Assembly (NCBI GenBank): GCA_025024175.1
Contig: QCXZ01000137.1
Location: 21,948,001 to 22,012,000, forward strand
Origin: Rhyzopertha dominica
Lineage: Eukaryota > Arthropoda > Insecta > Coleoptera > Bostrichidae
Direction of reading: 5' to 3'
DNA: 64,000 nt
Shown one piece after another: positions 1,451-63,955 of the stretch (position 1 is the stretch's first letter; every line of letters starts with the position of its first letter). Under the pieces are notes generated by a model. The model was not told where the DNA came from, did no database searches, and worked only from the letters and a program-made list of their open reading frames with translations. The translations under genes and the position numbers were made by a program.

Positions 1451-1601
1451 TGTAACGAGACGCCGCTTAAGTCCAGCTGGCCTTTTCCATCAGGACGATC
1501 AAACATCGTCTGCCAGCTGGCACACAGCGAAATGAACCGTCCCCACCACAACGTAAGAACATCCGGCGCAGGCCAGACGGCCCTACCACCGCCCAGAAGC
1601 G

Positions 1602-1607
1602 TATAAA
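1602..1607 (+). promoter_or_regulatory. TATA box of the 5' LTR
   Basis: TATAAA sits in a GC-rich context about 150 bp into the LTR, a plausible core promoter for the genomic transcript. The exact start site is not visible. Confidence 0.6.
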
Positions 1608-1654
1608 TTCTCAAGCCGATTCCTGCATCGCCCTCAGAGGTCTTAGGACCGTTG

Positions 1655-1803
1655 AGGAGACGTAGTGAGTCTCCTCCGGCCTGAACCAGTAAGCCCCGAG
1701 GTCCAGCGCCGTCGAAGAAGACGTAGTGAGTCTACTCCGGCCTGAACCGGCAAGCCCCGAGGTCCAGCGCCGTCGAAGAAGACGTAGTGAGTCTACTCCG
1801 GCC
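1655..1803 (+). repeat. 61-bp tandem repeat inside the LTR
   Basis: Units sharing the core GACGTAGTGAGTCT repeat about every 61 bp (two near-identical full copies plus a divergent partial first copy). The same array lies in the 3' LTR at about 4524-4672. Its position just downstream of the TATA box places it in the transcribed repeat region or 5' leader. Confidence 0.8.
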
Positions 1804-2150
1804 TGGATCTGTTATTGCTACGACACCGCCACACCGAGCTGCCAGCGAGAGGCACCCCGGTCCGTTCCAGCGGGCGAGGCGCCCGCATTGCCGTTCCGAT
1901 AGTCGACCGCCCGTACCCCGCCGCCAGCGAGGCCCCAGGTCCATCCCAGCGGGCAAGGTGCCCGTACTACCGTCCCGGGGACCAGACGGCCGACCCAGGC
2001 CCGCAACAGNAATATAATTCTTTAGTTTTACGTTATAAAGATATTTTAAGTTTGTATATACGTTACTTGCAATATACCTGATTGTTATGTAATTCTCCAC
2101 TGAGTTGTTTATTTACCCGCAGGCATACCACACCCAGGTGGTTACATAAC

Positions 2151-2168
2151 TGGCGCCCGAGCAGGGAC
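2151..2168 (+). promoter_or_regulatory. Primer-binding site (tRNA-Lys-like)
   Basis: The site starts TGGCGCCCGAGCAGGGAC four bases after the 5' LTR. It matches the well-known tRNA-Lys-type primer site except for G in place of A at the 11th position. It is followed by a short duplicated leader segment (about 2166-2201). Confidence 0.85.
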
Positions 2169-2336
2169 CGTTACGCAACAGCAACGACCGTTACGCAACA
2201 GCACCGAATATACCGAAGGTAATCAGCGAGAAGACCCCCTCCAGTACCGAGCGACCGCCCGGCTGCGACTGACCGAGCNCCGCCCACCGCAACCGAGCTC
2301 CGCGAGTCCAGGCCACGCCCACCGGAATACACAGCG

Positions 2337-4475
2337 ATGGCTACTGGGGCCGTTCCGAAGAGTTTTTCCGACCCAGAAGAAACTAGATCGACTGACCAGA
2401 CCACACCTTCTACGACGTGGGTCTATGAACTTTCTAAAGATCAGCTGGCCCGCTATTTACGTCGATTCCGTCTGGAAACAAGCGGAAAGATGGAGGAGAT
2501 GAGGGCACGGATGGTAAGGTTCATTCGTGACGGCTGCACGGCAGATTTGTCCGATGGTTCGTCGATCCCTGAACCGTTGCTTGCGGGACAAGCTACCGAG
2601 GCCGTCTACGACAAAATCCGCAAGTGGAACGTCCGTTTCGACGGCACGACAGACCCCGTATCTTTCCTAGAGCGGTTAGAAGAACTGCAGGCGTGCTATA
2701 CCGTAAACTGGGATGATATCCTCAGGGCTCTCCCGGAATTATTGAGAGGAAAAGCACTGCTGTGGTACCGAAATGATAAAAATGCCTGGGCCGACTGGAA
2801 CGACTTCGAAGAGGCGTTCCGAAGCCAATATTTGCCGCCCCGTCACCGGATGCGCCTAGAAGAGGACATCCGAGCCCGCACACAAGGACCCAAGGAGCGC
2901 ATTAAAGACTTCGTCGTAGCCCTGCAGACACTTATGCAACGAGTCGGCGGAATGACACCGGAACAAGTTCTGGACCGAGTATATGCGAATATGAGGCCAG
3001 AATATAAGCTCTACGTCAAGAGACGGGAGTGCAGGAGGCTGTCCGACCTAATACAAAGGGCTGTAGAGTTCGAGATTGTCCAGGAGGATAACAGGAACTA
3101 CCGACCGCCACCACCAGCCTCGAACGTATACTGCAGCGAGACAGCATACACCGGACCTAGAGGAAAGCCCGCAGAGCCCGAGTTTCACGTTGTAGAACAT
3201 GAAATTCATCCCCGGAACAAAACCGACCGCCAGAGGCAACACAATCCAAAAGTTACGGCGCCAGAGACCGCGTTATATGCGATGGAGGTCAGACCGCATC
3301 CCTGGAGACATAATGCCAGGCAGAAACCGTCCCGACCAAACAACCAGCCACGAAGTGTACCGTACCGCCGAGAAGAAGTCTGCTGGAGATGTGGCAAGAC
3401 AGGCCACTGGCGGGGAGACTGCACAGCACCCCGTAAGATGTTTTGTTCTTACTGTGGTAAGAAAAACATCCTCTCCAGAGACTGCCGGTGTCATCCGCAA
3501 TCCAGGCCGTTACCGTTGAGAAGAAGACCACCCAAGAGACGCCGCATAGATGTCGCACAGGTAGATCAGGAACCGTCCGGCATACCGACCAGTCCCATGT
3601 TTGACCGCCACCCGTTCGTGGAAATAATTGTGGGAAACCAGCCGTTCTATACCCTGTTGGACACCGGTGCTGGAAGATCGTACCTTGGCGAGCGACTCCG
3701 AGACCATCTGCTGAAGTTAGGCTACCGACCCGAAGCCAAGGCGGACTCAACAGTCAGACTTGCTAATGGCAGAGCGGCACCGATGACAGAAGAGTACCGT
3801 TTCCCGTATTCACTCCACCACGATCCCCGGAAAGGCGTGTGGAATTACCTACCGGGCCTCCTCACCGACGCTGTTCTAGGAGTGGATAATTTTCAAGGCC
3901 TCTCAATGGACTTCCAAAGAGGCTATCCCGAAGTATACCTCCATGGAAAGCCCGTNCCGACCCGGCAACGACCCAGNGCGANCCAGTTAAGTGCTTTAGA
4001 GGTCGCCAGTCCACCGATGGCTCCAGGAAGGGAGACGAGAAAACCGAACCACGTCAGGTCATCACACCGTCCAGTACGTCAACCAGAACCCCGAAGACCG
4101 CAGCAGCCGAGAACGCCACCGCCTAACCGGACCAGTCACGGCGCCTCCACCAGACCGTCTGAGCCGCCGAGAAAAAGGCGCCGCCGCAGTAGAAGGAGGC
4201 ATAAGAAGACTTTCCGTCTACGTTCCGAAGAAAGCGTAATCAGAACACCCAGGGAAGAAGCAGTCCCCCGTACTAGGATAGTCCGACCGATGCCTGCTTC
4301 TCCACCGACGGGAGGGGCGTGTAACGAGACGCCGCTTAAGTCCAGCTGGCCTTTTCCATCAGGACGATCAAACATCGTCTGCCAGCTGGCACACAGCGAA
4401 ATGAACCGTCCCCACCACAACGTAAGAACATCCGGCGCAGGCCAGACGGCCCTACCACCGCCCAGAAGCGTATAA
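2337..4475 (+). CDS. Gag-protease polyprotein of the LTR retrotransposon, 712 aa
   Basis: This is a structural protein with a retropepsin. Residues ~32-63 resemble a SAP-like helix-turn-helix seen in insect Gag proteins. Residues ~92-246 match the retrotransposon Gag domain (GKALLWYRN, FEEAFRSQYLPP). A CX2CX4HX4C zinc knuckle lies at 349-362 (CWRCGKTGHWRGDC). A second knuckle at 370-383 has Ile in place of His. An aspartic protease has DTGA at 442-445 and the second signature VLGVD at 513-517. After ~residue 545 come Pro/Arg-rich sequence and a very basic stretch (612-624, RKRRRRSRRRHKK), with no polymerase. The last ~51 residues are encoded by the 3' LTR, and the stop codon TAA falls inside that LTR's TATA box. 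Start ATG 2337 lies 190 bp after the LTR in good context. Two or three codons contain N. Apart from the missing polymerase the frame is intact. Confidence 0.92.
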   Translation: MATGAVPKSFSDPEETRSTDQTTPSTTWVYELSKDQLARYLRRFRLETSGKMEEMRARMVRFIRDGCTADLSDGSSIPEPLLAGQATEAVYDKIRKWNVRFDGTTDPVSFLERLEELQACYTVNWDDILRALPELLRGKALLWYRNDKNAWADWNDFEEAFRSQYLPPRHRMRLEEDIRARTQGPKERIKDFVVALQTLMQRVGGMTPEQVLDRVYANMRPEYKLYVKRRECRRLSDLIQRAVEFEIVQEDNRNYRPPPPASNVYCSETAYTGPRGKPAEPEFHVVEHEIHPRNKTDRQRQHNPKVTAPETALYAMEVRPHPWRHNARQKPSRPNNQPRSVPYRREEVCWRCGKTGHWRGDCTAPRKMFCSYCGKKNILSRDCRCHPQSRPLPLRRRPPKRRRIDVAQVDQEPSGIPTSPMFDRHPFVEIIVGNQPFYTLLDTGAGRSYLGERLRDHLLKLGYRPEAKADSTVRLANGRAAPMTEEYRFPYSLHHDPRKGVWNYLPGLLTDAVLGVDNFQGLSMDFQRGYPEVYLHGKPXPTRQRPXAXQLSALEVASPPMAPGRETRKPNHVRSSHRPVRQPEPRRPQQPRTPPPNRTSHGASTRPSEPPRKRRRRSRRRHKKTFRLRSEESVIRTPREEAVPRTRIVRPMPASPPTGGACNETPLKSSWPFPSGRSNIVCQLAHSEMNRPHHNVRTSGAGQTALPPPRSV
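4310..4319 (+). promoter_or_regulatory. Polypurine tract
   Basis: GGGAGGGGCG lies immediately upstream of the 3' LTR, where plus-strand priming is expected. It is read through by the Gag-protease ORF. Confidence 0.7.
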
Positions 4476-5015
4476 ATTCTCAAGCCGATTCCTGCATCGC
4501 CCTCAGAGGTCTTAGGACCGTTGAGGAGACGTAGTGAGTCTCCTCCGGCCTGAACCAGTAAGCCCCGAGGTCCAGCGCCGTCGAAGAAGACGTAGTGAGT
4601 CTACTCCGGCCTGAACCGGCAAGCCCCGAGGTCCAGCGCCGTCGAAGAAGACGTAGTGAGTCTACTCCGGCCTGGATCTGTTATTGCTACGACACCGCCA
4701 CACCGAGCTGCCAGCGAGAGGCACCCCGGTCCGTTCCAGCGGGCGAGGCGCCCGCATTGCCGTTCCGATAGTCGACCGCCCGTACCCCGCCGCCAGCGAG
4801 GCCCCAGGTCCATCCCAGCGGGCAAGGTGCCCGTACTACCGTTCCGGGGACCAGACGGCCGACCCAGGCCCGCAACAGGAATATAATTCTTTAGTTTTAC
4901 GTTATAAAGATATTTTAAGTTTGTGTATACGTTACTTGCAATATACCTGATTGTTATGTAATTCTCCACTGAGTTGTTTATTTACCCGCAGGCATACCAC
5001 ACCCAGGTGGTTACA
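4320..5015 (+). repeat. 3' long terminal repeat
   Basis: It is collinear with 1451-2146 at an offset of 2,869 bp. Its TATA box (4471-4476) overlaps the stop codon of the Gag-protease ORF. It is followed by the right TTGT duplication. Confidence 0.93.
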
Positions 5016-5019
5016 TTGT

Positions 5020-8000: not shown

Positions 8001-9423
8001 AGTCTTGGCGTATGGCATCTTTTATTTTTTCTTATCGTTCAGCACCGTCCGTAGTTTTCTCTAGACTAGCCTACTGTGCACGTCCTAAGATCGCAGTTTA
8101 TTGATTGATCGAATAACAATGGTAATAACAATAACATTAAAGAACTTTATTCCATTAGACCTCGTTACATGTATATTATTAGAAAAGCAAAATCGGAGAA
8201 GTCTGTTCCAACGATTTAGTTGCTTAGCCGTATAGGGGAAAGGCAAATGTTCTTCTAAACTTAATCATATAAAACAGCTGTAGAGTGACTAACCTTTGAA
8301 TATAAACATAATTATATCTATAACTAACACTTGTGATGAGTACGAGATATACTTGTAGACAGGTATGGTGAGCAAACTGGACATATACATCGATAGTGAG
8401 CAAAATTGGGAAGGGAGTAGCCTATGTATTCAGCTGAGCAACTAATTATAACTTTACAAGGTTAATGATTCATATTATGCTAAACAAAATAACATTTGCA
8501 TAATTAGACTTAGATGCAGTAACAGAGTTGTGTTGCAGATCACATGGAAGAGAATTGTTCAAATTACCAATATTGTAATGGAAAAAAAACGCTTTAAAAG
8601 GTTATACTTATAAGATAGAAAAGATAAAGTATATTTTCTACTAGTGTTAATCTGTACGTATGTTCTGCATCTTATTTTTTCGGCCAAATAAGGAGTACTG
8701 CTTAAAATTAATTTATTAAACAAATAAGCAGAAGGAAGTAGTCTGCTTTCCTTCAAGCTGAATCATGGCATTTACCTTAATCTACCAGTACAAAGATCAA
8801 ACTCAAGCAGGAATTTCGAGAAACTTGAATCCTTCTGTGATCGCTAAAATCAGAGCAGGAACAGAAAACAGCATCAGCAAAGTTAAATAAAGACAAACGC
8901 ATAATGCCACCTAAATATAAATATTTTGCTGTAAAGTTAATAATTAGATAGATTATAAATAACTGAGATTTTTAAAGGTTTTGTCTACAAGAACTTATGT
9001 GAAGTTTTAAACTATTTTTGTTACCCAGCATTAGACCCATGTTTTTGGCTAATGAAACTTTCTACAGTTTACACACATATTCCAATGTTAAGGTTTTCGT
9101 GTAAGTTACGATACAAAGTAGGAGCAGCAAATAAAATTATTTTAGATTTCAATGGATATCTTGGATGATACATTACATAATTCCTCAAGGATTCAGGTCA
9201 ATAACTAGCATCTTTTTATTTCTTATATGCTGAGCAGAGAAAAGGAGAACTTGCGCTCTTACCAGCTGCATTAAAGTGACATCCTCCATGTTTAATAGCA
9301 GATGCAAAAACAAATGAAAGCAAAATGTAAAAGACCAAGTACCGATATCTGTGACAAAGCACAAATGACTTTAGCTCTGTCTCTGTCGGTGACATAGCTA
9401 TTGAATGTACTCAAACAATTAAA
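5020..9423. other. AT-rich sequence without recognisable genes
   Basis: I see no supportable ORF. Part of it (about 7380-7990) has a more balanced base composition than its neighbours and no repeat signature. It could be conserved non-coding sequence, but nothing in the sequence proves that. Confidence 0.4.
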
Positions 9424-9888
9424 ATGCATGTTTACACCGCAGCCAACTACAGGAAGTAGTACCCATTAAGGCAGCTAGGTAGCTTCGTCATCGTGTCAGT
9501 TCATTGCTGACAGATAACATTGACATCTATTTTTCTACTAATATCGTACCAAGCCCTTAGTATATAGCCAGTTCTATGCCATGCTGTCTGCATTAGACCT
9601 AAAGTACAGTGATGAGCTGTAATGACAGCGAAATAAATTTATCTGTAGTTGATTGCGGTGCAGACAGCATAGCATAGATAAGCATTTTTATGTATGTCGA
9701 TTCTTGTCTGTCAGTAAAAAGTACCGTGGGGGCCTGTTGTTAGGTTGATGTATGCAGGTGCATGCCAGCTTGTGTAATTACAGGTCACTTTGTTTAGAAA
9801 GTAGTACCCATTAAGGCAGCTAGGTGGTTTGCTCATCGTGTCAGTTCATTGCAGACAGATGGCATTGCCATCTATTTTTCTACTAATA
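9424..9888 (+). repeat. Retrozyme-like hammerhead repeat, ~1.3 tandem units (345 bp period)
   Basis: The segment starting near 9451 recurs at offset 345 (GTAGTACCCATTAAGGCAGC at 9456 and 9801), giving one full and one partial unit. The first 27 bp (9424-9450) are a short inverted fragment of the same repeat. The unit is the same family as those at 12.0, 28.2, 32.5 and 37.0 kb and carries one hammerhead-type fold. No ORF is present. Confidence 0.8.
9581..9670 (+). ncRNA. Hammerhead ribozyme, type I, probably inactive copy
   Basis: A 12-bp outer stem (ATGCTGTCTGCA / TGCAGACAGCAT) encloses the core. Stem II is GCTGT-AATG-ACAGC and is followed by GAAA. Stem III is ATAA-AT-TTAT, and C is the predicted cleavage nucleotide. 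The expected CUGAUGA reads GUGAUGA at 9609-9615, so invariant C3 is G with no compensating change at G8. Stem I has one mismatch. The fold is recognisable but catalysis is unlikely. Confidence 0.75.
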
Positions 9889-10476
9889 CTTAAAGAATTT
9901 TTTTCCCATTCCGTTGTAATGCAGTATGACTAACAACACATGATTCACTCCAGAGCTCCAGAGAGAAGAAGTAAGAATTCAGACCCACTAGCGAAATATA
10001 ATAAAATATATATAACCTCAATAACACACAGCAATTGATTTTTATCGTAATAATATTAAAGTGTGTTCTGAGTAAGTTCAGCTTGATCTGGGTTAATGCA
10101 AATAATATGTGGAGACGTTATAATTGCCATCTTCGTGGATTGGATGAGGTGTGCGTCCACTCGCATTCCTTATCCTTTAAGTCATGAGGCATTTAATTGC
10201 ATTTGCGCCCGTATGTTTGCTGCAGTACAAATATGTTTGATCACTTTAATCCTACTTTTCCAGAATCTTATATGCACCATGGCAATAAAGGGCGTTGAGT
10301 GGTGACCTAAGTGTTTCATCTGTGGTGATGGAAACAGACTCTAGATTATGATCCCGGCATAGCCAGTCCTACTCCTTTGATACTCTACATTGCTTGACCG
10401 AGTTGGACATGGCGATTAAACCGTACGTATTAAATGTTCACGTTTAGCATCTTGTGTTAGTGGTATTCTGGAGAGA

Positions 10477-12042: not shown

Positions 12043-12063
12043 AATAAAATGCATGTCTATGCT

Positions 12064-12153
12064 GTGCTGTCTACACCTCAACCAACTGCAGATAGTGCTA
12101 TTTCGCTGTCATTACATCTCATCAGTACAGTTTAGGTCTAGTGTAGACAACAC
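12064..12153 (-). ncRNA. Hammerhead ribozyme, type I (first unit)
   Basis: On the minus strand a ~13-bp outer stem (one G-U pair) surrounds stem I AACTGTA/TGCAGTT, then CUGAUGA (12125-12119), stem II with AATG loop (one mismatch here) and GAAA (12104-12101). Stem III is the minimal ATAG-CA-CTAT. Predicted cleavage follows the C at 12091. All invariant core bases are present. Confidence 0.85.
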
Positions 12154-12415
12154 GGCATAGAACTGGCTTTGCTTATATACCAAAGCAATGGTATGATGAA
12201 AGTAAGAATTTAGGATGGCAATGCCATCTGTCAGCATTACACTGACATGATGACAAAGCCACCTAGCTGCCTTAACAGGCACTACTTCCTAAAGGAAGTG
12301 ACCTGTAGCCTGACAAATTGGCATGCAACTGCATATTTCAATTTGACAGCAGGCCCCCACGGCACTTTTTGTTAACGGGCAAGAACCAACATACATTAAA
12401 ANGCATGTCTATGCT

Positions 12416-12505
12416 GTGCTGTCTACACCTCAACCAACTGCAGATAGCACTATTTCGCTGTCATTACAGCTCATCAGTGCAGTTTAGGTCTAGTGTAGAC
12501 AACAC
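12416..12505 (-). ncRNA. Hammerhead ribozyme, type I (second unit)
   Basis: It has the same architecture as the first unit, 352 bp away. Stem II is perfect (GCTGT-AATG-ACAGC), stem III is ATAG-TG-CTAT, stem I is 7 bp, and the CUGAUGA and GAAA boxes are intact. This is one of the best-formed copies in the window. Confidence 0.88.
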
Positions 12506-13171
12506 GGCATAGAACTGGTTTTGCTTATATACCAAAGCAATGGTATGATGAAAGTAAGAATTTAGGATGGCAATGCCATCTGTCAGCATTACACTGACAT
12601 GATGACAAAGCCACCTAGCTGCCTTAACGGGTACTACTTCCTAAAGGAAGTGACCTGTAGCCTGACAAATTGGCATGCAACTGCATACTTCAATTTGAAT
12701 AGTTTCGAAGGTGTACTGTTTGTGAAATATGTCGAAATCATCACAAACGCAGGGTTGGAATCTATTAAGAAATTCCAAGCGAAAGTGACAATGTTTTTCG
12801 TTTAAACTGGAGCCGACAGACGAACGTCCTACCCTACATTTTGTTCTTCTGCGCAACTTCTCTCTCGCGGGTCAAGTTGTTTTGTACTAGATATACCCAT
12901 ATACATACTACAGAACACATACCACAGTATGTATTTACTTTTTTCTATTGATGGCATTAAACCAATGTTGTTTTCGTTCAGCTTCTTAAACCTGTCTAGG
13001 AAATCGATAAAAGCATATGTTTTTGCTGCCACGCGAATTTTCAGTATTATTACACCACAACACAACAATTTTTTGAGAGCAATTTTTCTTTGCTGCACTG
13101 TCAGATACTTACTTGTAAATACTAAATAACCCGATTTACTTATTCTGTATTCGGCTTTTTTAAATTATGTA

Positions 13172-26487: not shown

Positions 26488-28162
26488 CAACAAACGTTTT
26501 TTGCCATTAAGATTTCCTGAAATCTTTGTTTCTTTAGCAATCAAAACTTAATTATAAAGACAAATCTAAATTTTGCTAAACGCTCTTTTCTTGGTAGTTT
26601 CTTATGCGGAAGGTAAAAAACATAAAGCACAACCTCTTTTGTTAAGAACAATATTCAATCTTCTCAAAAATAAAAATAAAATAATAACAAAGGTTCTACA
26701 ATTTTAAATGATTTTTGTAATTTCAATTGTCCAGCACTAAATTATTTATTCGATCATTAATAATATAACAATTATATTGCTGCTATTGCTTGTTGGTATG
26801 AAATCAAGTTTGTTTCCATCATTGTTGTCTTTAATTTTTATTTTTGGTACTACCGAAGGTCTGGGTCCCCCTAAAGTTTTCTACGGTACTGTATATAAAA
26901 ATGGTTGCAACTTTAAGATTTTTACTCGAAATCGATCAGTCTTCAATGTTAAATGAAGCTAGTGAAACAATTTTATTTATTATAAACTGATATTAATGTA
27001 AGAATCCACTGTCAAATCGATTGTTGCGGTTTAAACCTGTTAATTATTATATTATATGGTATATAATGGTAATGGTTATGGTAATACCTGCCTACTTTAG
27101 GTGTAATTGTAATATTTTATTTATTTATTTAGGTATTTATTTATTCTCAAAATATATTAGAAGTGGTTATGCATAGTAATTACCCTGGGTTTGGGCAGCA
27201 AGCCCAGGATTGAATTAGGACAGATGTTAATAAATACTAGCCTTATCAAGCAAACGGTTGGTTTGTTTCCTTTTCCAACGAAGGGTAATTACACGAAAAA
27301 GAATGTGGCTCAATCCTAAAACATTCGCAGCTCTGTTATCATTAGTAGCAGACTAATTCGCAGCTTCAAATTTACTGGAGATCTTCTTATTGTCACTACC
27401 GCCGCGAATTTTAATTTCGTAGATAAACGGCTGAACAAAACAGTTGGCGCCAGAAATCGCCTTAAACAAAAGAATCACGTAGCTAGAAGACGATCGCGAC
27501 GAAAATATTTTAGACACTCCTGTTATATTGAATTTTACTCGTAATAAATGGATATAGGAAGCCAAGCCGTGCGCCACCTGCAAGGAAACAATAAGGATTC
27601 CTCCGAAAATATTATCTTTTTATTACGTTCTGAATAATGGGCTTACTGGCTTAGACAAAATTGGGTCTTAAAAGATTATTCCGCTTGCAATAAAAGAACT
27701 TCCGTCCATGTTTTGCTTATTAATGAGATATGTAAACAGATATTGTGATTCTATTTAATATTTTGTACTAGATGTAAAATCGTAATGAAAATTAAGACAA
27801 TAGATAAAATTCTTACTGGTTTGAATATTGGGCGGGCCGGTAGTGTTCTAAAGTGAGATACAATTTGGAATATTGTCAAGTAAAGTACATAGATATATTA
27901 TAATGAAGATATATCTGCATTAGTCCACCCGCCGCGGTCAAGACGATGGTCTGCTTTGGTCAATTTGCTCCCTACCCCTAATTGACGAGAGAGTGAATTG
28001 ACCAGGGCAGATGATTCTTTTCCTGCTTACGGGAGTAGCTTCTCCGACGCCATCTACAGGAACCTGCACTAGGTCGATGTCTATCACAGTTATAAACCGT
28101 CTAGCTCGCAGAGTTCCGCTTAGATAGCACTGAGGGCATTAGCTCTTGTATGAACGTAAACA
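26488..28162. other. No recognised genes
   Basis: This is AT-rich sequence. A 27,230-27,600 patch is compositionally more balanced and looks single-copy. Confidence 0.35.
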
Positions 28163-28453
28163 TGCTGACAGACGGCATTGACATCTAAATTTCTACTTAC
28201 ATCATACCAAGCCTTTGGTATATAGGCAAAACCAGTTCTATGCAGTGCTGTCTGCACTAGACCTAAACTGCACTGATGAGCTATAATGATAGCGAAATAG
28301 ATCTATCTGCAGTTGGTTGCGGTGCAGACAGCACAACATAGACATGTATTTTATGTAGGTGCATGCCAACTTGTCAGGCTACAGGTCACTTCCTTTAGGA
28401 AGTAGTACCCATTAAGGCAGCTCGGTGGCTTTGTCATCATGTCAGTGTAATGC
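28163..28453 (+). mobile_element. Retrozyme-like monomer
   Basis: A single unit of the 12.0-kb repeat family in the plus orientation, with an internal deletion relative to the 352-bp unit. It starts and ends at the same point of the unit (TGCTG at both ends), as expected for insertion of one circularly permuted unit. It carries an intact hammerhead. Confidence 0.8.
28245..28334 (+). ncRNA. Hammerhead ribozyme, type I, intact
   Basis: Outer stem GTGCTGTCTGCAC (28245-28257) pairs perfectly with GTGCAGACAGCAC (28322-28334). Stem I AACTGCA/TGCAGTT is 7 perfect pairs. CUGAUGA is at 28273-28279. Stem II GCTAT-AATG-ATAGC differs from other copies by a compensatory C-G to U-A type change. GAAA is at 28294-28297, stem III is ATAG-AT-CTAT, and cleavage is predicted after C28307. 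Confidence 0.9.
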
Positions 28454-28606
28454 TGCACCGTGATGAAATGACTCCATGGACTGACATATTGGGAAGCATT
28501 AAACCGCCACGTAAAATTCCAAAAAATTTTTTTTACTGTTCCAGCGCTTGTCAAAGTATGGTGGGCGTAAATTGTATCAAATCACGCCGCTAGAATGTTA
28601 TTTAAA

Positions 28607-32400: not shown

Positions 32401-32469
32401 CTTTAGGTAACATTGGAGGTAACTACATATTCAATTCAATTCATAAATAGTTTCTTTCTGCTTGCACCG

Positions 32470-32690
32470 CAATTAAGAACAGACAGATCTGTCTTGCTAT
32501 TATTGTAACTCTTCCGTGCCGTGTAGGTCCAGTGCAGAAAGCATGGCTTAGAATTAGTTTTAGCCATGTATCAATGCAATGATATGATGTCAGTACAAAA
32601 GTAGATGGCAACGCCATCTATCAGCTATAAACTGATATGACAATATAACCACCTAGCTGCCTTATCGGAAAACATCCTTTCCTATACTAA
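32470..32690 (-). repeat. Degenerate retrozyme-like copy
   Basis: It matches the 12-kb repeat family over the region ending CCACCTAGCTGCCTTA and over the hammerhead region. The CUGAUGA box reads CGGAAGA and stem II has collapsed, so the ribozyme is dead. It is the oldest-looking copy. Confidence 0.6.
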
Positions 32691-35589: not shown

Positions 35590-36930
35590 TAAATATTCAC
35601 ATTTTTAATATTAAAAATACATTTTACGATCCATTTTTTTTGAATTTATAAGCTATCACAGCTGTTTTGTGGATTAGATGCTACCTATTAATATGCAATT
35701 TAATAAAATATAAATACATGGCAAATACCCAATCAGTGTAGTTTATACTCTGAAACAATATAGGAAAATTACTACTTCACAAAACACATTCAATATATTG
35801 AACCTTTTAAGGCTAACTATAGATTCCAAACCGTTGTAGAATTTGTTTGGGGAACACATAGCTGAAATAACAAAACATTTTCCAATTTTTTCTGAGCGTC
35901 TTAAGGACAACTTAATAGATAATATATTTAAGTACTGTCTTTTGATCTGGGGACACTCATCATTATGTCGCTGTTCTTTTTTTGCAGAGAAAGGATGATG
36001 GAATTCTAGCCAGCGTATTCTACAGAGCTGACTTTCAGTTCAAACATAATGATACTACCGTCTATGTTTATTATTAATTGTTATATGCGTTTTAGAAAAT
36101 CTGTATCCTTATTCAAGATTCATGAAAATGTACATACATATGTTACTAGATCTATACAATGTGGTATTTTTTCTTGTTTGATTGAGCACAGACTTCATGC
36201 GACAAAAAGATTTAATGTACTTGACAACCTAAAAGGTGTTTGTAGACCAGGGATAGTAACGGAAACCTGGATACCCGGGTACCCGATAAACGTGTTAATC
36301 GGGCACAAACTATTGGTATGCAACATTTGATAGTATCTGAAAACCCGAGAACTATGCGTTAAACGCTAACTACGCGATATCCGTTAAGAACCCGATAAAC
36401 ACTGCAGCGAGAAATCCGATATTCAAGGTTACATCAGTACATACTTTGCGCCACCGAGCACCTAGCCGTGTTTATACGAAGTACTTCGGAGATATACCTA
36501 TTTAATTGCGTACGATTTAATTAATTTTTGATTACTTTTATTAGTGTAAAATGAGTTTTTATTGGATATCCGATGCTTATCGGGTATCGACGTATCGCGG
36601 GTAATAAAATTATCGGGTATCGGTATCCCTAGTATATTTTTAAGTTGCCCTAAAACTAGAATAGAAATATCTCTGATTAGCAATGCCTATTTTATGCATT
36701 TTATTTTGTTTTTTACTTCATTATGTCTTATTTATATTTTAATATTAACCTTGTGCAAAAATATTTTTGGGTGAGGTATAACTCAAAATAAAAAATTATC
36801 TCAATTGCTAATGATATCTTGATGATGATCTGGATAAGATAAAAGAAATCTCAATTTCTTATAAACATTAAGTAACAATCAAAATTTAAAACATGATTTA
36901 AAACATAATAATAATAACAAAGTTGTGTCT
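35590..36930. other. No genes; possible decayed inverted-end element
   Basis: At 36,249-36,632 inverted ends of the type AGGGATA with ATACCCG (repeated internally as TACCCGATAA / TTATCGGGTA) suggest an old DNA transposon. No convincing target duplication is visible. The rest is AT-rich. Confidence 0.35.
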
Positions 36931-37140
36931 ATGATATGTCGCCTGTTTGAAAGCAATCTGTGGACAGCTATTTCGGCTTATAAAGCCTCCTCAGCACAGC
37001 TATAGTCCCAACGCAGGCAACACGGCATAGATCTGGCTTTCCTTATAAACGCCAATGTAGGCGATGTGTATGCGAGAATCAGAATGTGGATGACACCGTG
37101 CCATCTAGTGGCAATACGGTATCATCTATTCGTCTCTGTG
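36925..37140 (-). mobile_element. Divergent retrozyme-like copy with intact hammerhead
   Basis: It shares with the 12-kb family the stretch around GGCATAGATCTGGCTTTCCT and the positions of the ribozyme stems, but it is diverged elsewhere. The ribozyme core is conserved by compensatory change. Confidence 0.7.
36937..37022 (-). ncRNA. Hammerhead ribozyme, type I, divergent but intact
   Basis: On the minus strand the outer stem TGTTGCCTG pairs with CAGGCGACA (9 bp, one G-U). Stem I is GCTGTG over CACAG (5 bp). The box CUGAGGA (36994-36988) fits CUGANGA. Stem II is GGCTT-TAT-AAGCC (5 bp, entirely different bases from the other copies). GAAA is at 36974-36971, with predicted cleavage after the C at 36963. 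Stem III is very short. Confidence 0.8.
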
Positions 37141-46078: not shown

Positions 46079-46184
<106 letters not shown>

Positions 46185-47374: not shown

Positions 47375-50300
47375 TGTACACCCGCGGACATAGAAAATGA
47401 GACGACCTAGCCGGGCTGCATACTGGGCGGGTTATTTTGGATCACAACCCTTACGTTATATCACTGGAAGGTATACTACCGTTATAACACTCCTCTGCGT
47501 TTCAAGTTTCAGATATTATTCGAAAATTCATATGCTTGCTTGCTTGCGTGCTACCCTTACTAGTTTAGCCTGCTCCGCTTGGTTGGCCAGGTTTCAGTTT
47601 AATTTATTTGTTGGCACCCAATGATGATGTTTAGCATATGTGAATAATTATCACGACTGACAAGCAGACAGGGGAAAATACGACTTATTTTTTAGTAAAA
47701 GTAAGTTTATGTTACTTACATATTTACTTAACTATCCATGAGCACTTTGGAATCTTTCTAAACTAAAATCAGGATACATTATTTAATAACATTAGCTGAC
47801 TTTTAAAAAACAAATTGTTTTTTGCAAAAAAAGTGGGGCAAAGACATTGCAATGTTACAAGTTGCAAAATAAGATTTCTACAAATAAGTACTTGGGAAAT
47901 TTAGATTTTAATGAAAATATCAAGCAGTGATATATATACAGTATAAAGGATATATTAAATGTGATCCAAACTGAATATAATAGAAACATTGATATATAAC
48001 GTCAATATAAGTAAGAGAATCTTATTATTATTATTATTAGTTTGGAAAAGATTTTTTTCTCACCAACGGTTAACTTTAGACAAATTTGCAGAGATGCGAA
48101 AATTACATACTTAAAGCGCCTTTACAATGAAGTAAATTAGCTGTGATTATTACTATAGCGTACCCCAGAAGCAAAAGGAACAACTTCCGGTTCACGAAAT
48201 GTGTCAAATCTTTTATGAATAATGTTTCTAAATAAGTCATAATCAACTGTAAAAATTTACTAACGTATGTTATTTTTTTACGTAGTTATAAAAAATGTAT
48301 TTTTGTTCAATTCTGGAGGGCAGTTACTTACCAGAGTTTGGAATTAGATAGGCAATAAAAATTTATGTTTGTTGTAATAAGTTACAGCAGATATTGTATT
48401 CTTTTAAGTTGTAGTCTAGCACTGTCATCCTCACACAGTACTATTTATTCAAATTTGATATGGTTTAGACGGTTTGATTGATCAATATGAAGCAAACACG
48501 CTTTTTAAACTAGAGTAGTATACAATGGTCTACCAATTTTTAAATAATATGTATTTTGCTTACCGAAAATATGTTACATTTCCTTTATTATTATTTTTTC
48601 TAAAATCATGCTTAACAGTTATTTAACAAACTGAAGCTTTTGCATTAAAAAATAAAAGTGCATTCTTAATGATAATCATTTGGAACACTAGCAAACTAGT
48701 AAGTGAAGATTGCACCTTTTCCGGAGCGATCTAGTAGCAGCTAATGAGATTGAGTGATACAAAAATCGTGTGTAGTAATTTGAAACTGCATCCACATTCA
48801 GGTAATCATGCAATAAGATTCGAGGCGCGTAAGAAAGCTTAAGCACGTTGTGGTCTGTTATTACCTGATTGTTCTGCGAAACTCGATGCAGGTAAGAACA
48901 ATATTGCATTGTCACTCATCTGTATTTGTGATGGACTACTTACCTATACTTTCTGGTATTAAAACTTTTATGGCCCTCCGGTGACGTAAGCGGACGGCCC
49001 GACAGATAACATGTTTCCCGGTAAAATTTTTGTTCTAGCGTTTGCCCGGGCTTAGTACACCCATCGCGAGAAAAATCGTAATCAGTTACGAGAGACATTC
49101 TGAACTATGTTAAAAAGCAAAAGTCCTTATTGTTCTTCACAATAATTGCTTTTATTGACTTTTACGTGTAATGGTAAAAGTTTTGTTATAAGTAATTTTA
49201 TCCTATTTTCAAATGTGTCAATACGAATAAAATTGATTTAAATATTGAAAGACGGTATGGATATATATTAATTAACTTTAAAATGAAATATGAAATTGAT
49301 TATAGTATTGTTTCTGCGAGGGAGTCCGTGAATTTGGAGAATTTCTGGAAAAGTGTATCCATTTATTGGTATAGGTATAGTTTTAGCAACTCAGATGACA
49401 TACTATATAACTTAAATTCTCATTTGTGCATCAATATTAAAAATACGAATGTTAATTGCGTTTATGTGCAAGTGATATTGAACTATTTTTGCTTTTTAAC
49501 TTTATTTCTGAATAGTTCTCTGAATTATCAAACGTTTAGGTTATAATCTCAAAGTCTCGCGACTACGATTTTTCTGATTAATAGTTCTCGCAATAGGTGA
49601 AATAATTTGGGGCGGGCGCCCAAACAAAAATTTTGCCGGGAAACATGTTATCGGTTCGTCCGCTTGCACCGCCGTAGGGCCATAAAATTTTAATACGTAG
49701 GTAGTGGTGAGTAATCCTTCACAAATACAGAGAAGTGGTATGCTATATTGTTTTTACTATAATTTAAGGCGTACGAGTTTCGCAAAACAGCCGGGTAATA
49801 ACAGATCCCAATGCGCTTAAGCTTCTTACGCGGCTCAAATTACTACAAATGAACAAATGGTACTCTTTTTGTATCACTCAATCTTATTGTAAACTGAGGG
49901 CAGCTATAACAGATCCCTCCGGAAAAAGTGCAGTCTTCGGTTTACTAGTTTGCTAGGGTTCCAAATGCTTATAATTAAGAATGAAGTTTTAATTTTTAAT
50001 GCAAAAACGTCAAGTTGTTAAATAACTTAGGGATGCTTTTATCAAAAAAATATAATAAAGGAAATGAGGCACATTTTAGGTAAGCAAATGCCTAATACTT
50101 AAAAATTGGTAGATCACTGTATACTACTGTAGTTTAAAGAGTTGGTTTGCTTTTATATTATATGCTATACATCAATGTAAATGAATACATCAATGTATGC
50201 AGTAAAGGCGCCTTAAGTATATATTTTTTGCCTCTCTGCAAATTTGTCCTATAGTTAACCGTTTCTGAGAAGAAGAATCTTTTCCAAACTAATACTAATA

Positions 50301-50850
50301 ATAATAAGATCCTATTACATATATTGACATTATATATGTTTCTGTTATATTCAGTTTGGATCACATTTAAAATATCCTCACCACTGTTTCTTAAATTCAT
50401 GTAATGTTATTAAATAATATAGGCGGATTTTACTTTAGAATAATTCTAAAGTGCTCATGGATAGTTAAGTAAATATAAAAACTTACTTTCAATAAAAAAA
50501 AGTTATATTTTCCTCTGACTGCTTGTCAGTTGTGATAATTATTCACCTTTGCTAAACCTTATCATTGCGAGCCAACAAATAAATGAAACTGGAACCTGGC
50601 CGACCAAGCGGAGCGGAAAAAACTTGTAAGGGTAGCAAGCATATGAATTTTGGAATATCTGAAACTTGAAACGCCGAGGAGTGTTATAACGGTAGCATAA
50701 CTTTTAGCGATATAATGTAAATGGCTCTACCTGCGCCGCTATGCGGCAACTAACTGTACTGATTTCACTGAGAAGAGTTGTGAACCAAAATACCCCGTCC
50801 GGTATGCCGCTCGGCTAGATCGTCTCATTTTCTATGTCCGCAGGTGTACA
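47375..50850. mobile_element. Giant foldback transposon, ~3.5 kb
   Basis: The left arm (~47375-49095) and right arm (~49550-50850) are inverted copies of each other. Ends read TGTACACCYGCGGACATAGA inward. Corresponding internal blocks include the AAGCATATGAATTTT region (about 47,530 / 50,640), the TAATAATAAT run (48,030 / 50,290) and AACATGTTTCCCGG (49,010 / 49,640). Arms differ by many substitutions and indels (about 80% identity in stretches I compared), so it is old. No transposase is recognised. The ~450-bp spacer contains an unrecognised 87-codon frame. No target duplication is seen. Confidence 0.82.
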
Positions 50851-62922: not shown

Positions 62923-63955
62923 CTAAACATATGGTATTGTAGCAAATACCAGGTTTATAGTTAACTGAACCATATTTTTTTTCCCAGTGTAAGGTTCCCA
63001 ATCAAATGTTTTGAAAAATTCGTCACATAGCGGTTCAACCTTGCCCAAATTGAAGTCTACGATTCTGTCTGAAACAAAGTGCTTCATTGCAGCCCAAACC
63101 ATCTCAATAGGGTTCAAGGTGAAAGGGTAGAAGTCGGAGAAAATCGTGGCCCTTGTCATTTAGCAATTTGTGAAAGAAAAGTATTTCTCTTTCGCAACCA
63201 ATCCATTATTTCTTCTTTCTCTATACACATATTAGGGCATTTTTCGACTTCCACATAATGGTAAGGCTCATTTTTTTTGTGGCAATTTTTGCACCACCCA
63301 TTTTAATAATAGTTTTGGAAGTTAATCTCATTGTGGTAATCACCAGATTTACCTTGCGACTTACACCTCAAGTAAGCGTTTGGTATACAACTATTTTCGT
63401 TCCCTGCGCCTAAAATAATTAGCCTTTGGCCCTTATTAGAAACAGGTTGGCGCAAAAAATTGTTTGTACCTTCGCTCCAGGATTTTAAATGAGTGTGAAA
63501 TGAATGGATATATGTTTCGTCCATGTATATTGTTGGTTTATTTTCCTGACGATATTCCTTTATCCTACGTAGATAACTAAGACGCATCTGTTGAATATGA
63601 GGTTTTTCCATAAGCCGCTTGCAACTAGTTTGTGTCTTCACCCATTTAAAACTCATTTTCTGCATCACTCATCTAATACTAGTTTCAGAACCAGTACAAT
63701 TATTTTCAGTATTGAATTTTTGGCGGATTCTGTTCACTGTCAATGTCTAATAAACTAAAAATGAGCATGTTTTGGCGAAACAAATAAAATAATTATGGGC
63801 ATATTTTCATAATACAAAAGAGTCGTGACTGTAACCAAACCATATCCTTTTTCCACAGTGTACGAATTGATGATGATGCGACGAAGAACCCCCATGTCAA
63901 AATCGTCTAAGTCCGTTATGGTTGCAGTCTTTCTTCGTTTTTTGTCTGACGTCAA
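62923..63955 (-). pseudogene. IS630/Tc1/mariner-type transposase pseudogene
   Basis: Three minus-strand blocks in order form one broken transposase. 63955-63755 (KKRRKTATITDLDDFDMG) is an N-terminal start. 63668-63303 contains PTIYMDETYIHSFHT, holding the first catalytic Asp, and QRLIILGAG with KSGDYHNEINF. A decayed stretch at 63302-63165 contains EPYHYVEV, where the second catalytic Asp of the usual DNAPYH motif is lost. 63159-62923 carries FTLNPIEMVWAAMK with the third acidic residue. Frameshifts and stops separate the blocks, and the DDE triad is incomplete, so it is inactive. Terminal repeats are not seen; the element may run past the window end. Confidence 0.85.

What the first reader, a model, noticed from the sequence alone, without database searches (positions are those of the whole stretch)
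12049..12696. Retrozyme-like tandem repeat with two intact type I hammerhead ribozymes
Two head-to-tail units (352-bp period), each non-coding, each contain CUGAUGA, a 5-bp stem II, GAAA, a minimal stem III and a long extended stem I. This is the organisation of retrozymes, which are thought to spread via self-cleaved circular RNA. The boundaries, host polymerase and mobilising reverse transcriptase of such elements in arthropods are poorly known.
Basis: partly seen in the sequence, partly recalled or inferred. Interest (0 to 1): 0.88.

Follow-up and report, generated by a model that had tools for sequence, protein, structure and literature searches.

The report
Ribozyme-bearing RNA parasite of Penelope retrotransposons
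The repeat is one copy of a large family of tiny non-coding jumping elements whose RNA carries a self-cutting ribozyme, and the way its copies sit in this animal genome suggests that single RNA molecules, probably closed rings, are written back into DNA by the enzyme of Penelope-like jumping genes.

Summary
The repeat is real: window 12045-12698 (minus strand) holds 1.86 non-coding 352-bp units, each with a type I hammerhead; the downstream one has a stem II mismatch. It belongs to a dispersed family with 2,522 exact ribozyme cores in the 479-Mb assembly: a metazoan non-LTR retrozyme. What is new is how copies are inserted. Of 52 loci read, 36 are head-to-head inverted arrays; in 31 of the 32 whose two outer ends could be classed, one end lies at site A (about U302) and the other at site B (about U148), neither at the ribozyme cut. 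In the first 28, 24 share flank matches of 10 bp or more (control 5 of 1,560), and both arms usually copy one template variant. The host's GIY-YIG Penelope-like elements (PLEs) show the same anatomy: 20 of 21 close pairs are head-to-head, and the 7 read have one tailed and one tailless end. Best reading: a PLE-type enzyme cuts both target strands and primes twice on one retrozyme RNA, probably a circle. Not shown: RNA cleavage, circles, or which PLE. The window copy itself is single-orientation, ends at A, and has no clear duplication.

The parts
12045..12698 (-). retrozyme array, 1.86 units of 352 bp; 5' end at U1 (12698), 3' end at site A (12045)
12400..12513 (-). upstream hammerhead with extended stem I (U186-U299); expected cut 12443/12442
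12048..12161 (-). downstream hammerhead with extended stem I; one stem II mismatch; expected cut 12091/12090
12045..12046 (-). site A (about U302), where this array ends; in the family one of two fixed cDNA start sites
12548..12555 (-). site B (U144-U151) in the upstream unit; second fixed cDNA start site in the family, not used as an end in this copy (also 12196-12203 in the downstream unit)
12524..12531 (-). TATATAAG (U168-U175), candidate TATA box (also 12172-12179); function inferred only
   Evidence: TATATAAG in 126 units, the next five variants 6 in all (top six printed)
9421..9886 (+). older copy, about 80% identical; plus arm 9451-9884 ends at U146 (site B); a short minus arm with an A end at about 9421-9450 and a diverged 13-bp duplication (9408-9420 / 9887-9899, 11 of 13 alike) were read by eye
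28162..28455 (+). copy of a variant lacking about 52 nt after site A; hammerhead complete, with compensated changes in stem II
32458..32668 (-). decayed copy, about 72% identical
36926..37117 (-). decayed copy, about 65% identical

Best explanation
A non-autonomous, non-coding retrozyme family. Inferred from anatomy and prior work: an array is transcribed, hammerheads cut the RNA into 352-nt monomers, and a host ligase closes them. Shown by the insertions: cDNA is primed on sense RNA at two fixed internal sites, A and B, one from each strand of a target cut with a stagger of about 10 bp; both arms of an insertion usually copy the same RNA variant, often for several rounds; the two cDNAs are joined head-to-head at short microhomology. 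Inferred: the template is usually one circle, and the enzyme is a GIY-YIG Penelope-like element (PLE) of the host, so that the retrozyme parasitises the PLE reaction of priming on two strands at two RNA sites.
For: 36 of 52 loci are head-to-head inverted; 31 of 32 fully classed pairs have one A and one B end. Copy number falls from 3,649 to 562 across A and from 2,653 to 1,803 across B. Flank matches of at least 10 bp in 24 of 28 inverted loci against 5 of 1,560 mismatched flank pairs, and in 5 of 8 in the second sample by script. Median unit divergence 0.5% within and between arms of a locus, 2.6% between loci; arm-level variants agree 27 to 9, 0 of 2,000 shuffles as high. About ten units in L049 with one segregating column. 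Host PLE: 20 of 21 close GIY-YIG pairs head-to-head, none tail-to-tail; 7 of 7 read have one tailed and one tailless end, 5 of 7 with flank matches of 12-16 bp by script; one carries RVT_1 and GIY-YIG. A purified PLE cuts and extends both strands from two internal RNA sites (PMC11167929, parts 1-2 of 4).
Against: The window copy itself is single-orientation, has no clear duplication and its units differ at 8 positions. Only 2 of 12 single arrays of the first sample have a flank match of 10 bp or more. Exceptions to A+B: one B+B (L038) and four inverted loci with an unclassed end (L049, L060, L066, L069), of which L049, L060 and L066, and L038, also lack the duplication. Nine arm-level variants disagree. 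A and B lie 155 or 197 nt apart, the two PLE ends about 40 nt. No sequence likeness between the unit and the PLE locus compared. In the published PLE the ribozyme was not needed for insertion and unprocessed RNA was the main substrate, which speaks against a required circle. No RNA data.
Confidence: 0.7

Rival explanations
1. Same PLE-type priming at A and B, but on linear, uncut multimeric transcripts of a genomic array instead of circles.
For: The purified Anolis PLE mainly used unprocessed RNA. 5' ends of single arrays gather near U1 (7 of 15 within 6 nt), which could be a transcript start. In L001, L034 and L043 the two units differ by 1.6-2.7%, as if copied from two genomic units or simply old.
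Against: 137 of 139 ribozymes are intact, so multimers should be cut; both arms of an insertion carry one variant; young insertions of 5-11 unit pieces have 0-2 segregating columns (L031, L044, L045, L049, L064). Newly made arrays would be uniform too, so this is not decisive.
Confidence: 0.2
2. A LINE enzyme moves the retrozyme, and the inverted copies are ordinary twin priming.
For: Twin priming by LINEs makes inverted insertions with duplications (recalled); LINEs of this genome were not examined.
Against: In LINE twin priming the second primer anneals at variable internal places (recalled); here both outer ends are fixed. The host's PLEs show the same A+B-like asymmetry.
Confidence: 0.07
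3. Inverted arms arise by snap-back self-priming of one cDNA, as proposed for rotifer PLEs.
For: Self-priming was proposed for PLEs with palindromic junctions (PMC3846280, passages).
Against: It predicts the same outer end on both arms and matching inner positions; observed are A on one side, B on the other, and unrelated inner positions with short microhomology.
Confidence: 0.02
4. A satellite DNA spread by unequal exchange; the hammerhead is a relic.
For: Tandem arrays of one period.
Against: Dispersed short insertions with duplications and fixed ends; 82 clusters in 18.7 Mb of one contig; 0 of 400 majority changes in 10 core positions over 40 loci; changes on both sides of 4 base pairs spread over three helices.
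Confidence: 0.01

Closest known systems
Metazoan non-LTR retrozymes (Cervera and de la Pena 2020, PMC7229834)
   Same: Type I hammerhead, non-coding unit within 170-400 nt, low GC, dimers to multimers, duplications longer than 4 bp when present, coexistence with PLEs.
   Different: Described there as tandem repeats; inverted head-to-head copies with two fixed ends are not mentioned ('inverted', 'orientation', 'head-to-head' absent from the main text). Circles were shown there, not here.
Endonuclease-bearing Penelope-like elements (PMC3846280 passages; PMC11167929 parts 1-2 of 4)
   Same: Head-to-head inverted ends, duplications of about 8-10 bp, one of the two ends longer by a tail, start of cDNA at two internal RNA sites, both target strands extended, AT-rich targets.
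   Different: PLEs encode RT and GIY-YIG endonuclease; the retrozyme encodes nothing. The two PLE ends are about 40 nt apart here, A and B 155 or 197 nt. The HHR of PLEs is a minimal variant; this one has a long stem I.
Plant LTR retrozymes (PMC7761336, passages)
   Same: Ribozyme-bearing non-coding RNA with a circle as proposed intermediate.
   Different: Type III hammerhead, LTRs of about 350 bp, PBS and PPT, 4-bp duplications; none of these was seen here, PBS and PPT not being searched for.

Membership tests
Metazoan non-LTR retrozyme | Type I hammerhead with intact core | tested here: met
   137 of 139 units intact by rule; Rfam HH9 full-length match below gathering score; core conserved
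Metazoan non-LTR retrozyme | Non-coding unit of 170-400 bp, GC below 50%, in tandem of two or more | tested here: met
   352 bp, GC 43%, longest open stretch 67 codons; arms of 0.1-6.7 units
Metazoan non-LTR retrozyme | Dispersed in many copies, with target duplications longer than 4 bp | tested here: met
   2,522 exact cores; 24 of 28 inverted loci with flank matches of at least 10 bp, but 2 of 12 single arrays
Metazoan non-LTR retrozyme | Self-cleaving RNA and monomer circles in tissue | not testable with these tools
   no RNA-seq or bench work here
Penelope-like element | Own RT and GIY-YIG endonuclease gene | tested here: not met
   the unit is non-coding; so it is not a PLE
Works like a PLE insertion | Head-to-head inverted copies with two different fixed outer ends and a short duplication | tested here: met
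   for the retrozyme; 56, 68 for the host PLE
Works like a PLE insertion | Sequence or structure signal shared with a host PLE at the start sites | tested here: inconclusive
   no likeness to one PLE locus (L070); other PLE families of the genome not read
Plant LTR retrozyme | Type III hammerhead in LTRs, 4-bp duplication | tested here: not met
   type I topology; duplications longer than 4 bp

The most novel reading that the evidence does not exclude
Animal retrozymes are RNA parasites of Penelope-like elements: one closed RNA ring carries a two-part initiation signal, and two enzyme subunits start at A and B from opposite target strands and run round the same ring at the same time, laying down inverted multimers. 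The same anatomy would be expected in retrozymes of other animals and would define their long-missing ends and their enzyme.
Probability: 0.5. Interest if true: 0.85.

Novelty: new variant of a known kind. Interest (0 to 1): 0.74.

Why it matters
Which enzyme moves animal retrozymes, and whether circles are its template, is open: a 2024 review still says 'LINEs or PLEs' (PMC11722881, passages). The insertion anatomy gives an answer that can be tested in vitro: two defined start sites, one 352-nt RNA, one enzyme class. If the share of inverted copies in the map-ordered sample (8 of 12) holds for the family, the genome keeps many hundreds of natural records of two-strand priming by a PLE-like machine, a mechanism that is little known.

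Tried and rejected
Rejected: simple satellite; snap-back self-priming; an antisense template (both outer ends are sense 3' ends, so both strands prime on sense RNA); usual run-off at the ribozyme cut (0 of 15 single 5' ends and 1 of 56 inner ends of the first sample within 3 nt of U257; the 9-kb window copy, read by eye, may be another). Rfam microRNA hits at inverted junctions are by-products of long inverted repeats. A hammerhead in the host PLE was sought by a pattern in L070 and by Rfam in L071, L074 and L076: none found; its 3' region has GGTCGAAACGTC, which recalls PLE hammerheads (recalled), without a recognisable CUGANGA box. Likeness of retrozyme and PLE sequence: none in L070. The host was not identified. 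The bacterial-type promoter scan is uninformative here.

Corrections to my own counts: one search left gaps in L039, L048 and L059; one search shows that these belong to the arms, which moves the B-arm median from 353.5 to about 453 (by hand), against 851.5 for A arms. Junction microhomology of at least 2 bp: 19 of 24, with those three loci and L057 dropped; null 16.7%. The list typed into one search had 23 rows, one row without microhomology left out; its inner-end list carries the corrections.

Biases: the first 40 loci are the best-scoring 40 of 1,760 candidates, so biased to young, long copies. The 12 further loci follow map order but need an exact core. The 7 PLE loci come from 20 head-to-head pairs and were chosen mostly for small size. 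The flank comparison includes 14 bases inside each end, in data and control alike. The drop at A is partly due to greater variability downstream and to the deleted variant seen at 28 kb; the B-side 20-mer before B ends some 10 nt short of it.

Full report
What is there. On the minus strand, from 12698 down to 12045, lie 1.86 copies of a 352-bp unit. I number the unit U1-U352 from 12698. Each copy has CUGAUGA at U222-228, stem II 229-233/238-242, GAA at 243-245, a short stem III (246-249/252-255), the expected cut at U256/257 and a long interrupted stem I (186-221/257-291). Rfam finds nothing at gathering thresholds; at relaxed thresholds Hammerhead_HH9 fits the upstream copy over its full length (27.2 bits, gathering score 52, E 2.6e-4). 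The downstream copy has one mismatch in stem II. Both fold better than 200 of 200 shuffles. As a circle the unit folds to -137.9 kcal/mol, against -85.8 (sd 6.0) for 60 mononucleotide shuffles.

It is a family. The window compared with itself shows four more copies of different ages, in both orientations. The window lies in a 479-Mb assembly of 138 contigs. There the exact 28-base ribozyme core occurs 2,522 times, the reversed pattern 0 times. Of 139 units that cover the ribozyme in the first 40 loci, 137 are intact by my rule, and the base before the cut is C (128) or A (11). Ten core positions carry no majority change in 40 loci (0 of 400; whole unit 1.03%); unit by unit, 4 of 1,431 core letters differ, against 688 of 42,635 outside the ribozyme. 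On 35 aligned copies the three helices show changes on both sides of 4 pairs (5 cells; shuffled mean 0.7 each; as high in 4 of 500 shuffles for pairs, 0 of 500 for cells); slid versions of the structure gave 0-2 such pairs.

How copies are inserted. I read the 40 best places. Twenty-eight are two arms facing head-to-head, minus arm left, plus arm right. Their outer ends are sense 3' ends and fall at two places: A (about U302) and B (about U148). Twenty-three loci have one of each, one has B twice, none A twice, four have an unclassed end; the twelve single-orientation arrays all end at A. In a second sample of 12 consecutive places on contig C1, taken in map order from the exact-core list, 8 are inverted, all with A and B (the left arm of L082); 2 are single and end at A, 1 is single and ends at B (L080), 1 is a fragment (L088). 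Together 31 of 32 fully classed inverted loci are A+B (p 7.7e-9 against free choice with equal odds). In the whole genome the 20-mer just before A has 3,649 copies and the next one 562; near B the counts before and after are 2,653 and 1,803. Among the first 100 listed B-side 20-mers, neighbours within 1 kb are minus-plus 22 times, same-strand 9 times, plus-minus 0 times; among the first 100 cores, within 1.5 kb, 10, 8 and 0.

Target duplications. Left and right flanks share an exact stretch of at least 10 bp in 24 of 28 inverted loci; of 1,560 pairs of flanks from different loci 5 do. Of the 8 inverted loci of the second sample 5 do by script; in L082, after its left arm was found, I read an 11-bp match by eye. 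Of the 12 single arrays 2 do. The first 12 bases outside A and B are 75% and 78% A+T, against 64% and 69% further out. So most inverted copies are one event: both strands cut with a stagger of roughly 10 bp and both 3' ends extended. Arms meet at varied positions, with microhomology of at least 2 bp in 19 of 24 (null 16.7%, four rows dropped).

One template per insertion. Units differ by a median 0.5% within an arm, 0.5% between opposite arms and 2.6% between loci. At 16 variable columns a minor letter in one arm is shared by the opposite arm in 374 of 410 comparisons, by units of other loci in 1,024 of 7,481 (3,000 sampled pairs). With one vote per arm, 27 variants agree and 9 disagree over 26 loci; shuffled pairings agree in 9.6% on average, at most 28.6% in 2,000 tries, against 75%. 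L049 holds about ten units in two arms with one segregating column, though it has an unclassed end and no clear duplication. A multimer of that size with intact ribozymes is unlikely to survive uncut, so I favour one small circle copied again and again; this step is inference. cDNA ends do not pile up at the ribozyme cut (1 of 71 within 3 nt), so cut linear monomers are not the usual template.

The likely enzyme. The genome holds many GIY-YIG matches (144 listed, a lower bound). Of 21 neighbouring pairs within 6.5 kb, 20 are minus-plus, 1 minus-minus, none plus-minus. In L070 one frame carries RVT_1 and GIY-YIG. I read 7 of the 20 pairs: all are head-to-head, and in each one outer end carries a tail of about 40 nt (..ACACCAACAACT) that the other lacks (six by script, L070 by eye); the script finds flank matches of 12-16 bp in 5 of 7. 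This is the known PLE anatomy: an inverted pLTR, duplications of 8-10 bp and a tail on one of the inverted ends (PMC3846280, passages). The purified Anolis PLE cuts and extends both strands of its target, starting at two internal RNA sites that delimit the tail (PMC11167929, parts 1-2 of 4). The retrozyme has the same two-ended signature with a wider spacing. I found no sequence likeness to the PLE locus compared, so the partner PLE is unknown.

What is known. Animal retrozymes with type I hammerheads, tandem non-coding units and circles are known, and PLEs are suspected because they coexist (PMC7229834). A 2024 review leaves LINEs or PLEs open (PMC11722881, passages). My searches, in an open-licence library only, listed no paper whose title or abstract start describes inverted retrozyme insertions; most listed papers were not opened, and subscription papers and supplements were not seen.

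Limits. The window copy lacks the inverted arm and a clear duplication, and its two units differ at 8 positions; it is a single-orientation member, not the best example. Its 5' end at U1 is shared by others (7 of 15 single arrays within 6 nt): a transcript start or a strong stop, not resolved. Cleavage, circles, expression and the host's name were not tested.

Noticed in passing
1451-5016 (+): LTR element: direct repeats 1451-2147 and 4320-5016 are 99.6% identical; the 712-aa frame 2337-4475 has a gag domain (E 1.7e-12), zinc knuckle and protease only below their cut-offs, and no pol match. It looks like a young gag-only, non-autonomous element.
   Followed up: partly
12441-12452 and 12089-12100 (-): Stem III plus loop is a palindrome in the family (UAGUACUA), and by eye also at 28 kb (UAGAUCUA), 9 kb (UAAAUUUA) and 32 kb (CAGAUCUG). 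The two window copies each depart from it, but are exact complements of each other (UAGUGCUA, UAGCACUA), as a ribozyme acting as a dimer would need. One case only.
   Followed up: partly
12698 (-), U1: 5' ends of single-orientation arrays gather within 6 nt of U1 in 7 of 15 loci (p 4.6e-7); inner ends of inverted arms do not (3 of 56). Transcript start or strong stop of the enzyme before the G-rich stretch.
   Followed up: partly
28162-28455 (+): A variant of about 300 nt that lacks some 52 nt just after site A and starts and ends near U110-U115, not at A or B. How common it is was not measured.
   Followed up: no
L080 342-837: The only single-orientation array seen that ends at B (U146); it starts at U3 and has a 12-bp flank match.
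   Followed up: no
47375-50850: Several long inverted repeats (73-88% identical pieces), perhaps a palindromic transposon.
   Followed up: no
46081-46179: Perfect (TA)49 repeat.
   Followed up: no
63303-63668 (-): 121-aa frame that recalls a DDE transposase fragment (recalled); no Pfam match at E 0.01.
   Followed up: partly
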